Below are positions 47,534 through 52,504 of a stretch of DNA of 57,623 nucleotides, one piece after another. Made by a program: the position numbers and the translations under genes. Source of the DNA: Acidimicrobiaceae bacterium (GTDB taxonomy: Bacteria; Actinomycetota; Acidimicrobiia; Acidimicrobiales; MedAcidi-G1); contig PBDJ01000028.1 in NCBI GenBank assembly GCA_002717365.1, forward strand, positions 1 to 57,623, given 5' to 3'. A model generated the notes under the pieces. It was not told where the DNA came from. It made no database searches and worked only from the letters and a program-made list of their open reading frames with translations. The stretch's first letter is position 1; the number at the start of each line of letters is the position of its first letter.

Positions 47534-50254
47534 TTATTCGTGGGAGATGGCGTCCAGCACGTTCAACCTTGAGGCACGTCTGGCCGGCAGGATGGCGGCG
47601 AGCATCCCGAACAGGCCGGACACCAGCAGGTAGTTAAACAAGCTTGTATAGGGGATCGAGACAATGTCGACGAACGTCTCGGGCAGGGCAGCGATTGCTG
47701 CTAAGCCAAAGAGGACACCCATGGCCACGCCGAGCAGGCCACCGAAGAGGGCGATGATGACGGCTTCCCAGCGGATCATTCGGCGGAGTTGTCGGCGGGT
47801 CATACCGATGGCCCGTAAGAGGCCAAGTTCTCGCGTCCTCTCATAGACCGACAAGGCCATCGTGTTGGTGATGCCCAACACGGCAATCATTAGCGACAGT
47901 CCAAGGAACACCTGAATTATCGACAGCAACTGGTCGAGTTGCTTCTCTTGCGAATCGCGGAATTCGGATCGATTCTCTACAACGACCTGTGGGTAGGCGT
48001 CGGTGTAGACCTCGATAGCAGTTCGAGAGGCGTCGTTGTCAGCGCCGACTGGGAACAGCACCGAAATCCAGCCAAGTGGCGCAGTCGGAAGGTACGAGTC
48101 AAAGACCGAGACGTCGACTACCCAGTTCCCCAGAAGGGTCGAGTCTTCAAAGATTGCTGCCACGGTCAACTCGATAGTCCGATTACCTGGGAATTTGGCT
48201 GCAACTGGATCACCGATGGTGAGCCCCAGGTCAGCTGCCGGGTCGACGTGGACCAGGACCCCATTGGTCCCGGCGTGGAACTCGGAGCCCTCGATCACCT
48301 GCAGGTTCATGTGATCGTCGAGGACTGCGAGGTCGGCGGCCACCACGTCCTTGAAGCTGTCGCCGATGTTTACTCCACCCAAAGTCCAGCGCATTGTCAT
48401 TGCTGACTTGACGAGGTCGGGTCTTTGAAAAGCTAGCTGCTGTAGGTCGGCCCCGAGTTCAGTGGAGAAGCCGGCCTGTGGGTTGAACGCGTCCCCATAT
48501 ACGAAGAGATCCGCCTCGACACTCTGATCCATAGTGCTGAGAAAGGTCGTTTTCACAGAGTCGCTTACCACTGCGGCGAGGCTTACCAGGGCGAGTCCGA
48601 TGGTCAGGGCTGCGGCGGTTGCCGCGGTGCGGCGCGGCGAGCGGCGAGCGTTGTCGGTCGCTAGTCGGCCTGGTATTCGGTACACCTTGCGGACGGGCCA
48701 CCCGAGCACGGCCGCAACCTGCCCAGTTATCGCAGGGCTAAGCAGATATACGCCTATGAACGCAGCGAGAGCGCCTCCTCCAATCGCGACCAGGATCAAG
48801 CGGGTGGACATTTCGACGGTCATCCCCGCGGCGAGGGCGCCAATACCGGCGACTGCCACTGCGCCACCTACCACAAGGCGCCGTCGCAGCCCCGTCGGGG
48901 TAAGTCGAAGGTCGTCTCGTAGGGCAGCGACCGGCGGAATCTTCCGAACGCGTCGTGATGGTCCGATCGCAGATAAGAGAGTGGCGCCTACCCCGACCAC
49001 CGATGCCACAACGATGGTCCGGGGTCGGATCGGGATCGAGCCGGGCAAATCTCCGAAGCCGATCTTGACAAGCACCCAACGGAGAAGAGCGGCCAGTAGG
49101 TAGCCGGCTAGTAGACCGAGTGCGCTTGCGACCACACCTATTACAACTGCCTCCAGCCTTACTGATCGGCTGATCTGCCGGCCGGTGGCTCCCAGCGCTC
49201 GGAGCAGGGCCAGTTCGCGAACTCGCTGCCCGATCACGATCGAGAACGTGTTGTTGATGATGAAGGCACTAACCACTACGGCGATAACTGAGAAACCCAG
49301 AAGGACCGAGGAGATGATGTTCAGAAATTGGTCGAAGTCACTCTGGTCCTCGGCGATCTTGGTGGCTGCTGTCACCACCTCTAACTCGACCTCTGCGAAA
49401 ATCGCTAGCTGGTTCTGTTGGTCCTCTGGAAGGGTTGAGAGAAAGGCTCGGAATTCGGCTGTCGCCATGTCGAGGCGATCCCGGATTGCGGTCATTACCG
49501 CAACCTCGTCCGTATCGTCCGCCAGGGCGATGGCGATCTCGTCGTAGACGCCAACCTTGTTGGCGACCTCCTGGGCAGTCTCTTCGTCGAACGCGCTGAT
49601 GTTGGCGCCGATGTTCTTGTTTTCGTCCGGGTCGCCGAAGTTGGCCGTTCCCACGAGGACAAATTGGCGGTTACCGATAGGTGCACTGACCGTGTACGTC
49701 TCGCCAATGGTGAACCCGTATTCGTCGGCCGTCATGGTGTCGAGGACAAACTCGCCGACGACGTTTGGGTCCGATATCGATCCGGTACGTAATGGGGCCC
49801 GACCGTCTGCAATGAAGAGTTGGCTTAGGTCCTCCAATGCGTTCCCGTAGTCGGCCCCGTCCGGTACTCCGTAGTTGAAGCCGAACTGCGGCGCTCCGCC
49901 GTTGGTGCCGATTGCCGCGAGTTCGCCGTTGTCGTCGGTGTACAGGGGGACCACATTCCAGCCCACTACCGACGGTCCCACGGACCGAATCCCGGGGACG
50001 TCCTGTATGAACCCAAGGACCTCCTCCGGTACGGGGAGCCGGTTGATTCGGTCGGCCCCTTCATCGATTGATGCCCGGACGACCAGGTCCAACTCGCCAC
50101 TGATGTCGGTAGCGAGCTCGTCAAAAGTGTCTCGGAGTCGGTCTGTGAGGAAGAACGACGTTGACAGGAATGCGACACCCAACACCACGGCCAGGGTCGT
50201 GAGGGCAAACCGCAGCTTGCGGCGCGTGATGTTCCGGAAAGTAAGTCGGAACAC
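47534..50254 (-). CDS. ABC transporter permease of the FtsX/MacB family, duplicated
   Basis: A 906-residue permease with two FtsX-type modules. After an N-terminal helix (ALTTLAVVLGVAFLSTSFFL) come a large extracytoplasmic domain and helices around FIINNTFSIVIGQRVRELALLRALGATGRQI. A second periplasmic domain follows, then ALSVYERTRELGLLRAIGMTRRQLRRMI with the last helices. The RELxLLRAxGxxRxQ signature occurs twice, as expected. It is coupled to the ATPase gene 4 nt upstream. These systems usually export peptides, lipoproteins or drugs or act as mechanotransducers. The substrate is unknown. Confidence 0.92.
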   Translation of the reverse strand: MFRLTFRNITRRKLRFALTTLAVVLGVAFLSTSFFLTDRLRDTFDELATDISGELDLVVRASIDEGADRINRLPVPEEVLGFIQDVPGIRSVGPSVVGWNVVPLYTDDNGELAAIGTNGGAPQFGFNYGVPDGADYGNALEDLSQLFIADGRAPLRTGSISDPNVVGEFVLDTMTADEYGFTIGETYTVSAPIGNRQFVLVGTANFGDPDENKNIGANISAFDEETAQEVANKVGVYDEIAIALADDTDEVAVMTAIRDRLDMATAEFRAFLSTLPEDQQNQLAIFAEVELEVVTAATKIAEDQSDFDQFLNIISSVLLGFSVIAVVVSAFIINNTFSIVIGQRVRELALLRALGATGRQISRSVRLEAVVIGVVASALGLLAGYLLAALLRWVLVKIGFGDLPGSIPIRPRTIVVASVVGVGATLLSAIGPSRRVRKIPPVAALRDDLRLTPTGLRRRLVVGGAVAVAGIGALAAGMTVEMSTRLILVAIGGGALAAFIGVYLLSPAITGQVAAVLGWPVRKVYRIPGRLATDNARRSPRRTAATAAALTIGLALVSLAAVVSDSVKTTFLSTMDQSVEADLFVYGDAFNPQAGFSTELGADLQQLAFQRPDLVKSAMTMRWTLGGVNIGDSFKDVVAADLAVLDDHMNLQVIEGSEFHAGTNGVLVHVDPAADLGLTIGDPVAAKFPGNRTIELTVAAIFEDSTLLGNWVVDVSVFDSYLPTAPLGWISVLFPVGADNDASRTAIEVYTDAYPQVVVENRSEFRDSQEKQLDQLLSIIQVFLGLSLMIAVLGITNTMALSVYERTRELGLLRAIGMTRRQLRRMIRWEAVIIALFGGLLGVAMGVLFGLAAIAALPETFVDIVSIPYTSLFNYLLVSGLFGMLAAILPARRASRLNVLDAISHE

Positions 50255-50258
50255 TTGG

Positions 50259-50999
50259 TCAGCCGCCGATGGCCTTGATTCGATCGAGAATACGGTCGGC
50301 GTCAGGGTTGGTCATCTCGTCGACGATCTGTCCATCAGCCAAAAACAGCACCCGATCGGCCATCGCCGCTGCTCCGGCATCATGAGTGACGACCACGAGC
50401 GTTTGGCCAAGGTCGTCTACGGCACCCCGTAGAAAGTCGAGAATTTCGCCACCAGTTACCGAATCGAGATTGCCGGTCGGTTCGTCGGCAAAGATAATTT
50501 CCGGCCTGCTCACCAGCGCCCGAGCTACGGCGACCCGTTGCTGCTGTCCCCCCGACAACTCGTCTGGCCGGTGTCGAAGACGGTCTTGAAGGCCAACCGT
50601 CTCGATGACGTTGACCACCCACGAGGCATCAGGCTTCCGACCTGCCAGGTCCAAGGGCAACGTGAGGTTCTCTTCAGCAGTCAGAGTGGGGATGAGGTTG
50701 AACGCCTGAAAGACGAACCCAACCTTGTCACGCCGCAAGAGGGTGAGATCGCGCTCGGAGAGGCTGCCGAGTTCCACATCGCCGATATGGACCGTGCCCG
50801 ACGTCAGGTCGTCGAGACCCGCGGAACAGTGCATGAGGGTGGACTTGCCGGAGCCCGACGGCCCCATGATGGCGGTAAACCTTCCCCGTTCGAATTCGAC
50901 ATCTACACCGTCCAGGGCACGAACTTCGGTATCCCCGGTTCCGTAGATCTTTGAGCCGCCCGACATGCGGGCTGCTGACACGATGGTCTGACTTGTCAT
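50259..50999 (-). CDS. ABC transporter ATP-binding protein (MacB/LolD-like)
   Basis: This 246-residue ATPase has Walker [14 protein letters not shown], signature [16 protein letters not shown], Walker [14 protein letters not shown] and the switch His in VVVTHDAG. The Q-loop is [18 protein letters not shown]. It starts at the ATG at 50999, 7 nt after a minus-strand TAGGGT box, so the message appears leaderless. It forms an exporter with the permease immediately downstream. Confidence 0.94.
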
Positions 51000-51006
51000 G
51001 GGTTGG

Positions 51007-51016
51007 ACCCTAGGGT
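51007..51016. promoter_or_regulatory. Palindromic ACCCTAGGGT: shared -10 region of a divergent promoter
   Basis: ACCCTAGGGT is a perfect 10-bp palindrome. Read on the minus strand, TAGGGT ends 7 nt before the ATG of the ABC ATPase gene. Read on the plus strand, TAGGGT (51011-51016) ends 7 nt before a GTG at 51024. A single symmetric site could thus open in both directions. Confidence 0.55.
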
Positions 51017-51023
51017 CAGATCC

Positions 51024-51062
51024 GTGGCAAGGACTTGTTGTGTGGCGTGGCAGGGACCGTGA
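51024..51062 (+). CDS. Candidate leaderless 12-codon upstream ORF with Cys-Cys
   Basis: GTG at 51024 lies 7 nt after TAGGGT, the same spacing as other leaderless genes here. The frame encodes MARTCCVAWQGP and its TGA (51060-51062) overlaps the GTG of the acetyltransferase gene at 51059 as GTGA. Two adjacent Cys codons recall leaderless poly-cysteine leader ORFs that act as attenuators in mycobacteria, although only two Cys are present. No protein evidence exists. Confidence 0.4.
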   Translation: MARTCCVAWQGP

Positions 51063-51577
51063 ATTCTGTCACCGGTCCGGGTATCCGCCCTGCTACATCC
51101 GACGACCTGGTCCGCCTGGTCGAGTTGAACAACGCCGCTGTTCCGGCTGTCAACTACCTCACTCTGGACGAGATGGCTCGGTTCCTTCGGGTAGCACACC
51201 GATTCCTAGTAGCAGAGGTTCCCGAAGACGGCACCGTAGCGGCCTTCCTTGTCGGTCTAGATGGTCCCGAGTGTTTCTACGACAGCCTCAACTACGAGTA
51301 CTTCTGTGATCGCTATGACCGATTCCTCTACGTCGACCGGATAGTCGTTGATCCAGTGGCCTGGGGGCGGGGTCTAGCCCAAGGCTTTTATCGAGCTTTC
51401 GTTACCTCTGCAGTTGGACACACTCACCTATGTGCTGAGGTCAACACGGTGCCGCGCAACGAGCGGTCGCTGGACTTTCACCAACGGTTCGGCTTCAAGG
51501 CCATTGGGGAGCGATCTGACGAAGGGACAGGCAAGTCCGTCCGAATGTTTGCCCTGGAGATTTCAGGAGACGGTTAG
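51059..51577 (+). CDS. GNAT-family N-acetyltransferase
   Basis: This is a 172-residue GNAT-like protein beginning MNSVTGPGIRPATSDDLVRLVELNN. The acetyl-CoA loop is VDRIVVDPVAWGRGLAQGFYRAF, and AEVNTVPRNERSLDFHQRFGFKAIGE closes the fold. An FCDRYDRFLYVDRIVV segment resembles a group of predicted acetyltransferases (COG3818-like). I chose the GTG at 51059 because it overlaps the uORF stop and starts just before the conserved IRPAT. A GTG at 51047 is possible. Its TAG overlaps the stop of the opposite gene. Confidence 0.85.
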   Translation: MNSVTGPGIRPATSDDLVRLVELNNAAVPAVNYLTLDEMARFLRVAHRFLVAEVPEDGTVAAFLVGLDGPECFYDSLNYEYFCDRYDRFLYVDRIVVDPVAWGRGLAQGFYRAFVTSAVGHTHLCAEVNTVPRNERSLDFHQRFGFKAIGERSDEGTGKSVRMFALEISGDG

Positions 51578-51780
51578 TCGCGGACCACGATGGTGCCGGC
51601 GGGCCGACTCCCCCTCGACCCACAGGACCAGCACGGCTCGTTGGGGTCGCCCCGCCAAGCCACCTCGCAGCGTGAGCAAACCAGACCAACCCAGTGGGCC
51701 GGCTCAACGGGGGCTATCGGGGCCGAGGACCGAAACGGTGGGACGCCACGTAGCGGATGGTCGAGAGACGGATCGCCCAT
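51574..51780 (-). CDS. Small zinc-ribbon protein
   Basis: This 68-residue protein has a Cys4 ribbon: CSRCEVAWRGDPNEPCWSCG (CxxC-x11-CxxC), followed by a short basic C-terminus. The N-terminus is Pro-rich and probably flexible. It starts at the ATG at 51780, with GGAG 6 nt upstream on the minus strand. The open frame continues upstream to 52023 but runs through the cyclophilin leader. Its stop overlaps that of the acetyltransferase (TTAG). The function is unknown. Confidence 0.75.
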   Translation of the reverse strand: MGDPSLDHPLRGVPPFRSSAPIAPVEPAHWVGLVCSRCEVAWRGDPNEPCWSCGSRGSRPAGTIVVRD

Positions 51781-51946
51781 GCTTTGCTCCGGGGACCGGG
51801 ACAACGGCCGGGGTGCCATGCGCGGCACCGTAGCGAAGGTCCGCGCGCCACTGGGTGACCCCGGCTCCGCGGCCCGTAGCCTGCCTGCGGCGACCACACG
51901 GTGCCTGTGCACCACCCACCCGATCCGGGTCGCCGAGGAGATCCCG

Positions 51947-52504
51947 ATGTCGGACCTGATCCCGAACCCCGACGGCTCCAGTGAGCGCCGTATCTCTTTC
52001 CCGGCAGCCCCGCCCATGGTCATCGACCCGGCGAAGGCTTACACGGCGGAGATGGTCACCTCTATGGGGAGCATGACCATTGGCCTGGACCCCCTGGCCG
52101 CCCCAAAGACTGTCAACAACTTCGTATATCTGGCCCGCTGGCATTACTACGACGGTCTGGTATTCCACCGGGTGATCAACGGTTTCGTGATCCAGGGAGG
52201 CTGTCCGGAGGGGTCGGGTCGGGGCGGTCCCGGCTACCGTTTCGCTGATGAGTTGCCGAAGCCCGGCCGGTATGAGATCGGTTCGTTGGTCATGGCCAAC
52301 GCCGGGCCGGACACCAACGGTAGCCAGTTCTTCGTGGTCACCGGCTCCAGCGGGGTGGGCCTGCCGCCGGCCTACGCGCTGTTCGGCAAGGTCATCAAGG
52401 GCGTCGAGGTAGCTACGGCCATCCAGGAGGTCCGGACGGGACCCGGCGATCGCCCGGTGGAAGATGTGGTCATCGAGTCGGTCACCGTGACCGAGTCGGA
52501 CTGA
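51947..52504 (+). CDS. Peptidyl-prolyl cis-trans isomerase, cyclophilin type
   Basis: A 185-residue cytosolic cyclophilin. The catalytic Arg is in DGLVFHRVINGFVIQGG. ANAGPDTNGSQFFV and ALFGKVIKGVEVATAI complete the active site. The first 45 residues (MSDLIPNPDGSSERRISFP...) form a short lead before the beta-barrel. It starts at the ATG at 51947 with GAGGAG 6 nt upstream. No signal peptide is visible. The gap 51781-51946 upstream shows no other gene. Confidence 0.93.
   Translation: MSDLIPNPDGSSERRISFPAAPPMVIDPAKAYTAEMVTSMGSMTIGLDPLAAPKTVNNFVYLARWHYYDGLVFHRVINGFVIQGGCPEGSGRGGPGYRFADELPKPGRYEIGSLVMANAGPDTNGSQFFVVTGSSGVGLPPAYALFGKVIKGVEVATAIQEVRTGPGDRPVEDVVIESVTVTESD

What the first reader, a model, noticed from the sequence alone, without database searches (positions are those of the whole stretch)
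51000..51062. One palindromic -10 box appears to fire both ways, and one side opens into a Cys-Cys leaderless uORF coupled to an acetyltransferase
ACCCTAGGGT (51007-51016) is a perfect palindrome. Each strand contains TAGGGT placed 7 nt before a start codon: ATG of the ABC ATPase on the minus strand and GTG 51024 on the plus strand. The plus-strand GTG begins a 12-codon ORF (MARTCCVAWQGP) whose TGA overlaps the GTG of the acetyltransferase as GTGA. Seen directly: palindrome, spacings, ORF and overlap. Known: palindromic -10 elements can give bidirectional promoters, and leaderless poly-Cys ORFs act as attenuators in mycobacteria. Inference: the exporter and acetyltransferase may be co-fired, with the uORF tuning the latter to cysteine supply.
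Basis: partly seen in the sequence, partly recalled or inferred. Interest (0 to 1): 0.75.

Follow-up and report, generated by a model that had tools for sequence, protein, structure and literature searches.

The report
Two-way promoter with coupled mini-gene
A short symmetric DNA signal between two back-to-back genes in a marine actinobacterium probably starts messages in both directions, and one message begins with a tiny coding stretch that may hand ribosomes to the next gene; the proposed link to cysteine is not supported.

Summary
The reported letters are all there. The palindrome is 12 bp (51006-51017); its ACCCTAGGGT core occurs once in the assembly. TAGGGT is the commonest leaderless -10 hexamer in a 450-kb sample of this genome, 10 of 72 sites. 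A -10 lies 6-8 nt before the ABC ATPase start in 40 of 41 loci, the window's included: that side is solid. The opposite hexamer is complete in 13 of 40, in three lineages. An ATG/GTG uORF at leaderless spacing exists in 3 of 42 loci, the window and its two nearest species. There the promoter half is nearly frozen (1 of 30 positions vary) while the uORF body drifts (10 of 29) without codon periodicity. Cys-Cys survives in 3 of 3, which chance allows about one time in ten; RNA folding and gene function give cysteine control no support. Best reading: a symmetric-TA bidirectional promoter plus a leaderless, GTGA-coupled uORF relaying ribosomes to the acetyltransferase; plain leadered initiation is a close rival. 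Both kinds are known.

The parts
47534..50254 (-). FtsX/MacB-type ABC permease, next gene on the minus strand after the ATPase
   Evidence: ORF; NCBIfam matches, all under cut-off, to ADOP/MacB/LolCE-type permeases
50259..50999 (-). ABC ATPase (MacB/LolD-like); predicted leaderless, A of ATG at 50999 is also the predicted transcript start
   Evidence: PF00005; -10 at 6-8 nt in 40 of 41 loci
51006..51017 (.). 12-bp perfect palindrome GACCCTAGGGTC, core of the proposed two-way promoter
   Evidence: read; the inner 10-mer is unique in the assembly; invariant in L002-L004
51007..51012 (-). -10 hexamer TAGGGT for the ATPase, 7 nt before ATG
   Evidence: TANNNT at 6-8 nt in 40 of 41 loci
51011..51016 (+). 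-10 hexamer TAGGGT for the uORF/acetyltransferase, 7 nt before GTG 51024
   Evidence: TAGGGT is the commonest leaderless hexamer in the own-genome sample; full TANNNT on this side in 13 of 40 loci
51024..51062 (+). 12-codon uORF (M/V)ARTCCVAWQGP, predicted leaderless; G of GTG 51024 is the predicted transcript start
   Evidence: same length and position only in L002, L003, L004 (3 of 42 loci)
51036..51041 (+). the two Cys codons TGT TGT (TGT TGC in L004)
51059..51062 (+). GTGA stop/start overlap of uORF and acetyltransferase
   Evidence: kept in 3 of 3 nearest species
51059..51577 (+). GNAT-family acetyltransferase, substrate unknown
   Evidence: PF00583 E 9.2e-9; divergent neighbour of the ATPase in 41 of 41 loci where both are in view

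Best explanation
The 12-bp palindrome is the shared core of two overlapping -10 elements whose TA dinucleotide is common to both strands (ANNNTANNNT). It starts a leaderless ATPase/permease mRNA at 50999 (minus) and an mRNA at 51024 (plus), one polymerase at a time. Because the plus mRNA begins with GTG, ribosomes load on its 5' end, read the 12-codon uORF, and on terminating at GTGA restart on the acetyltransferase GTG 51059, whose Shine-Dalgarno-like AGGG is modest and very close. The uORF acts as a ribosome relay; its peptide, Cys-Cys included, is probably incidental. Shown: letters, spacings, conservation, genome-wide leaderless signal. Inferred: both transcript starts, uORF translation, reinitiation, polymerase exclusion.
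For: Genome-wide TANNNT peak at 6-8 nt before ATG/GTG start candidates (ATG 17, 16, 10 and GTG 16, 9, 4 at distances 6, 7, 8, against 0-3 at most other distances); 72 of 311 called genes have it, TAGGGT the top hexamer with 10 of 72 sites. ATPase -10 in 40 of 41 loci. Plus-side TANNNT in the window clade (3), the L005/L006/L009 clade (ACCCTATGGT: both hexamers kept although the palindrome is broken) and genus g3 (7). Both predicted starts have C at -1 and a purine at +1, preferences described for mycobacteria (PMC4633059, passages). Of the 59 positions from ATPase start to acetyltransferase start in L002-L004, 1 of the first 30 and 10 of the last 29 vary (Fisher P 0.0025); conservation returns at GTG 51059 (4 of 36 positions vary in the first 12 codons). 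uORF length, GTG and GTGA kept in 3 of 3. Short ORFs overlapping a called gene start as RTGA are enriched at leaderless spacing elsewhere in the sample (3 of 38 against 1 of 256, P 0.007; with alternative starts 5 of 38 against 10 of 256, P 0.03; small numbers, some rows nested).
Against: No transcript or ribosome data. The plus-side T is present in 13 of 40 loci, three lineages, which base composition alone could give. Independent leaderless signals would give about 1.3 two-sided sites in the sample against 3 seen (P 0.15), and 0 of 44 sites has called gene starts on both sides. Short ORFs that merely end near a gene start are not enriched at leaderless spacing: 7 at five distances against 14 at ten control distances. 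Anti-SD energy at GTG 51059, -6.0 (-8.7 in L003), is near the median of leadered-type starts (-5.8) and like that of L007-type relatives without the uORF (-6.2 to -7.0), though weaker than the L005 clade (-9.5 to -11.6): plain leadered initiation from a 35-nt leader is possible. The uORF is confined to three species.
Confidence: 0.55

Rival explanations
1. Plain 5' leader: the plus transcript starts at or near 51024, but the acetyltransferase is initiated directly at GTG 51059 by the nearby AGGG; the uORF is a by-product without effect.
For: Anti-SD energy -6.0 is ordinary for leadered-type starts here (median -5.8; random median -3.7) and like that of L007-type relatives (-6.2 to -7.0); the uORF body shows no codon constraint; relatives appear SD-led, e.g. 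-9.5 to -11.6 in the L005 clade and -11.4 to -13.4 in four of five g5 loci.
Against: AGGG ends only 3 nt from GTG; the GTGA overlap and exact 12-codon length are kept in 3 of 3 with no indel; an mRNA beginning with GTG would be translated from its end if the rule found in mycobacteria holds (PMC4633059, passages).
Confidence: 0.28
2. One reading: the leaderless Cys-Cys uORF is a cysteine-responsive attenuator of the acetyltransferase.
For: Cys-Cys in 3 of 3 nearest species, one with a synonymous TGT to TGC change; CC in only 0.5-0.9% of such frames; Cys density 2 of 12 equals that of six mycobacterial Cys-rich sORFs taken together (25 of 145 codons, worked out from numbers in PMC9094748, passage).
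Against: Keeping CC is expected in 8-12% of cases given drift of the body; four non-synonymous codon replacements elsewhere in the uORF between L002 and L003; no ATG/GTG uORF at leaderless spacing in 39 of 42 loci; fold z-scores -0.61 and 0.15 for the window and L003 (L004 not folded); GNAT of unknown substrate without a sulfur link; none of 32 cysK-type/cysD loci has a Cys-bearing leaderless sORF upstream; among 38 leaderless-spaced sORFs in the sample 1 has CC (this one), against 7 of 300 at control distances; no room for a terminator between uORF and gene.
Confidence: 0.07
3. The palindrome is an operator for a dimeric regulator, and promoter function is one-sided (ATPase only).
For: Perfect 12-bp dyad; invariant in the three nearest species.
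Against: The inner 10-mer is unique in the assembly; the dyad is broken in the L005 clade and elsewhere while the ATPase hexamer stays; the symmetry follows from two TANNNT hexamers sharing TA.
Confidence: 0.1

Closest known systems
Bidirectional promoters with symmetric -10 elements (Warman, Grainger and colleagues; PMC12825309 abstract and introduction read, PMC10268837 passages read; the 2021 primary paper is not held)
   Same: Two overlapping -10 elements on opposite strands between divergent genes. Two hexamers sharing TA would give start sites 23 bp apart at the optimal -10 spacing (my geometry), and 23 bp is one of the common distances named in PMC12825309. Predicted distance here is 25 bp, the upper edge of the 7-25 bp definition in PMC10268837.
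   Different: Both sides predicted leaderless, so the shared element lies directly beside two start codons; GC-rich TAGGGT hexamers in an actinobacterium; starts not mapped.
Leaderless small ORFs coupled by RTGA to the next gene in mycobacteria (Shell et al. 2015, PMC4633059, passages read)
   Same: GTG placed where the transcript should start, short ORF, TGA overlapping the next RTG, architecture kept while the peptide drifts.
   Different: Found in an Acidimicrobiales MAG; lineage-specific (3 species); translation not measured.
Polycysteine leaderless sORF attenuators of mycobacteria (Canestrari et al. 2020; paper not held; known here only through passages of PMC9094748, PMC9031893 and PMC13236596)
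   Same: Short ORF at leaderless spacing with adjacent Cys codons before a gene.
   Different: Only two Cys codons, mid-ORF; downstream gene not tied to sulfur; not found beyond three species; no functional data.

Membership tests
Bidirectional promoter (symmetric -10) | Overlapping -10 elements on opposite strands | tested here: met
   TAGGGT on both strands sharing TA, 51007-51016
Bidirectional promoter (symmetric -10) | Divergent transcript starts 7-25 bp apart | tested here: inconclusive
   Predicted 50999 and 51024, 25 bp apart; starts inferred from sequence, not mapped
Bidirectional promoter (symmetric -10) | Transcription in both directions | not testable with these tools
   Needs 5'-end mapping or reporters
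RTGA-coupled leaderless sORF | RTG at the first base of the transcript | tested here: inconclusive
   GTG 7 nt after TAGGGT; 6-8 nt is the genome's leaderless spacing; start not mapped
RTGA-coupled leaderless sORF | TGA of the sORF overlaps the next start as RTGA | tested here: met
   GTGA 51059-51062, and in L003 and L004
RTGA-coupled leaderless sORF | Architecture conserved more than peptide | tested here: met
   3 of 3 nearest species keep it; body varies at 10 of 29 positions; absent further out. Three species only
Polycysteine leaderless attenuator | Run of Cys codons conserved by selection | tested here: inconclusive
   CC in 3 of 3, expected by chance in 8-12%
Polycysteine leaderless attenuator | Downstream gene(s) of cysteine/sulfur metabolism (as for cases described in the passages seen; some lie before hypothetical genes) | tested here: not met
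   GNAT PF00583; the one NCBIfam match is far under its cut-off
Polycysteine leaderless attenuator | Output responds to cysteine supply | not testable with these tools
   Needs reporter assay

The most novel reading that the evidence does not exclude
A single palindromic -10 puts an exporter and an acetyltransferase in direct competition for one polymerase slot, both mRNAs being leaderless, and in one lineage the acetyltransferase side gained a Cys-Cys uORF whose stalling at low cysteine gates the enzyme: polymerase exclusion and a cysteine gate within 65 bp.
Probability: 0.05. Interest if true: 0.65.

Novelty: new member of a known kind. Interest (0 to 1): 0.3.

Why it matters
It is a compact natural case in which two published ideas, symmetric -10 promoters and leaderless coupled uORFs, may meet in an uncultured actinobacterial group. 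The conserved ATPase side and the changing acetyltransferase side across 41 genomes give a series for studying how a one-sided promoter becomes two-sided and how a gene may come to depend on a leaderless relay.

Tried and rejected
Cysteine attenuation: tested by conservation, codon pattern, RNA folding, gene function and a look upstream of cysK-type and cysD genes; no support. Operator palindrome: inner 10-mer unique in the assembly, dyad not conserved across lineages while the ATPase hexamer is. Earlier acetyltransferase starts (TTG 51035, TTG 51038, GTG 51047): 51035 and 51047 are not ATG/GTG/TTG in L003, TTG 51038 is shared by all three, L003 alone has an ATG at -30; conservation begins at GTG 51059. 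Acetyltransferase itself leaderless in relatives: 0 of 42 loci within 260 nt upstream of the aligned region. Looser uORF matches (TTG starts, or 5 or 9 nt) turn up in 14 further loci; in the parts printed none has Cys-Cys, and they are not treated as the same feature. Correlation of the two-sided site with a short intergenic gap: looked at by eye, no pattern (L027 has a shorter gap and no second hexamer). Rfam at E up to 1: one match far under its gathering score, mir-6132, E 0.59. Homology of GATCCGTGG between the window clade and the L007-type leaders: MAFFT did not align the copies; unresolved. Codon-position variation over the whole acetyltransferase was spoiled by an indel and an N run in L004 and is not used; only its first 12 codons are. 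One search took one start position for all loci although L098 and L102 are truncated; one search checked both with the right start and found nothing either.

Full report
What is there. The window lies in a 1.87-Mb, 45-contig assembly, 78% complete. Between an ABC ATPase (minus, ATG at 50999, followed by a permease) and a GNAT acetyltransferase (plus, GTG at 51059) lie 59 bases. They hold ACCCTAGGGT at 51007-51016, which extends to a 12-bp perfect palindrome at 51006-51017, with TAGGGT 7 nt before ATG 50999 on one strand and 7 nt before GTG 51024 on the other. GTG 51024 opens a 12-codon ORF ending in GTGA with the acetyltransferase start.

Is it a promoter? I took a 449,910-base sample of the own genome (20 stretches plus the window, 24% of the assembly) and called genes with a codon-score script of my own (311 genes, 75% coding; it missed the acetyltransferase itself). 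TANNNT peaks sharply 6-8 nt before ATG and GTG start candidates (ATG 17, 16, 10; GTG 16, 9, 4), against 0-3 at most other distances. 72 of 311 genes carry it, and TAGGGT is the commonest hexamer, 10 of 72 sites; 15 of 34 TAGGGT sites have ATG/GTG at 6-8 nt against 8% for TANNNT at control distances. So this organism very probably uses leaderless starts, with 7 nt a usual spacing and TAGGGT a favoured -10. Both predicted starts also have C at -1 and a purine at +1, preferences described for mycobacteria (PMC4633059, passages).

Conservation of the pair. The acetyltransferase was found in 43 of 48 genomes of the family, 5 of 6 genera (44 matches). I examined 42 loci from 41 genomes, the window's own among them; the matches of G025 and G040 were not fetched. 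In 41 of 41 loci where the ATPase is also in view it is the divergent neighbour (in L011 the contig ends too early). A TANNNT hexamer 6-8 nt before an ATPase start codon is present in 40 of 41 (L026 lacks it). This is strong evidence for a leaderless ATPase across five genera. The second hexamer, read from the same TA on the other strand, has its final T in 13 of 40 loci: the window and its two nearest species (ACCCTAGGGT), L005, L006 and L009 (ACCCTATGGT), and seven loci of genus g3 (AGGATACGTT, once AGGATACATT). On an ATPase tree this needs at least three changes, of which well-supported branches force two (quick tree, many forks weak). A T in three lineages is no more than base composition could give, so two-way use is not a family-wide feature. 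That the L005 clade keeps both hexamers while the palindrome is broken speaks for promoter use rather than an operator.

Two-sided sites in the genome. The exact 10-mer occurs once. Of 44 ANNNTANNNT sites in the sample (3 perfect palindromes), 3 have ATG/GTG at 6-8 nt on both sides (window 51007; L085:266; L079:7576) and 0 do so in each of four control ranges; 0 of 44 has a called gene start on both sides, and the sample holds 47 divergent called pairs. Background expectation is 0.29; expectation from independent one-sided leaderless signals is 1.3. So the excess over background is small and no more than leaderless promoters overlapping now and then would give; it is not a widespread design here.

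The uORF. An ATG/GTG 6-8 nt after a TANNNT, opening a short ORF upstream of the acetyltransferase, is found in 3 of 42 loci: the window, L003 and L004, each with 12 codons, Cys-Cys at codons 5-6, and GTGA. Looser matches (TTG starts, or spacing 5 or 9) occur in 14 other loci. The three peptides are (M)ARTCCVAWQGP, (M)AWDCCAAVQGP and (M)ARDCCVAWQGQ. Aligned without gaps, the first 30 intergenic positions (promoter, GTG and the Ala codon) vary at 1, the other 29 at 10 (Fisher P 0.0025). The ten variable positions fall 3, 4, 3 on codon positions 1, 2, 3 of the uORF (counted), so there is no sign of codon-level constraint. For scale, ATPase third positions vary at 63 of 246. Given that drift, keeping the five letters that matter for Cys-Cys has a chance of about 8-12% (rough; treats sites and species as independent). 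Variation drops again at GTG 51059 (4 of 36 positions in the first 12 acetyltransferase codons), which supports that start.

How it probably works. The plus mRNA should start at GTG 51024; in mycobacteria an RTG at +1 was found necessary and sufficient for leaderless initiation (PMC4633059, passages). RTGA coupling of leaderless small ORFs is over-represented there, and the authors noted that linkage can be kept while the peptide is not. In the present sample, short ORFs overlapping a called gene start as RTGA make up 3 of 38 at leaderless spacing against 1 of 256 at other distances (P 0.007; with alternative starts 5 of 38 against 10 of 256, P 0.03; the window's own uORF counts as uncoupled there because its gene was not called). 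Against this, short ORFs that merely end near a gene start show no excess: 7 at five leaderless distances, 14 at ten control distances. The acetyltransferase GTG has an anti-SD energy of -6.0 (-8.7 in L003), with AGGG ending 3 nt from GTG. That is ordinary for leadered-type starts (median -5.8 of 259), better than random (-3.7), similar to L007-type relatives without the uORF (-6.2 to -7.0), and weaker than the ATG of the L005 clade (-9.5 to -11.6). I therefore favour a ribosome relay, with direct initiation as a serious rival. With one shared -10 only one polymerase can bind at a time; at the E. coli promoters tested, basal transcription is too low for competition, which can arise when one side is activated (PMC12825309, abstract and introduction).

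Why not cysteine. Two Cys codons mid-ORF; a GNAT with no specific family over cut-off (three weak PDB matches); unremarkable RNA folds for the window and L003 (z -0.61 and 0.15); restriction to three species; and no Cys-bearing leaderless sORF in the 500 nt upstream of 32 loci of the genus: 20 of 28 cysK-type matches and 12 of 12 cysD matches (one sORF without Cys before L111). All cysK-type matches lie under the family's own cut-off, so some may not be cysteine synthases, and the window's own assembly has no cysD match. Leaderless-spaced sORFs in the sample are not clearly richer in Cys (two or more Cys in 7 of 38, against 37 of 300 at control distances; CC in 1 of 38, this one, against 7 of 300). 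The primary paper on those attenuators is not held.

Verdict. A real, tidy arrangement made of two known kinds of part. The ATPase promoter is well supported, two-way firing likely, uORF coupling somewhat more likely than not, cysteine control unlikely. Two searches of the held open-licence papers (2 papers, 10 of 271 listed) showed no title on leaderless transcription in Acidimicrobiales or on bidirectional leaderless promoters; this is no proof of absence from print.

Mends made on checking. Added: anti-SD energies of the L007-type relatives, the missing excess of nearby short ORFs, the 0 of 44 sites with two called genes, the looser uORF matches, and the numbers of cysK-type loci not examined; genera corrected to five of six. 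Because of the first two, the confidence in the relay was lowered from 0.58 to 0.55 and that of the plain-leader rival raised from 0.25 to 0.28.

Noticed in passing
window 51574-52023 (-): A 149-aa ORF with a Cys-rich zinc-ribbon-like C-terminal part runs convergent to the acetyltransferase and meets its stop; similar Cys-rich coding DNA appears at the same place in several relatives (seen by eye in flanks printed).
   Followed up: no
window 51019-51027; leaders of L007, L008, L010-L012, L016-L018: GATCCGTGG, which holds the uORF start GTG, also precedes the acetyltransferase start in these other members of the genus, where no leaderless uORF is found. Only 4 copies in the 450-kb sample on both strands. 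MAFFT did not align the copies.
   Followed up: partly
L085:266-275 and L079:7576-7585: Two further ANNNTANNNT sites of the own genome with ATG/GTG at 6-7 nt on both sides: candidates for other two-way leaderless promoters.
   Followed up: no
L076, L077, L080 (minus strands): Other leaderless-spaced short ORFs overlapping a called gene start as RTGA: MVCFDPVVLARLIR, VLRGLPTLVVVR and a 38-residue one with three Cys.
   Followed up: no
L005 upstream of the acetyltransferase: A TTG 5 nt after TATGGT opens a 12-codon ORF (LLAADHGVTGDA) whose TGA overlaps the acetyltransferase ATG as TGATG; sisters L006 and L009 lack the TTG, so it may be chance.
   Followed up: no
L027 upstream of the acetyltransferase: ATG 5 nt after TAAAAT opens a 5-codon ORF (MLRPR) ending in ATGA at an in-frame ATG of the acetyltransferase; may be chance, since a longer in-frame start exists and L075 lacks the overlap.
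   Followed up: partly
G002 contigs C48 and C51 (L018, L011): One genome carries two near copies of the acetyltransferase locus, which may be strain mixture in the bin; G013 has no match at E 0.001.
   Followed up: no
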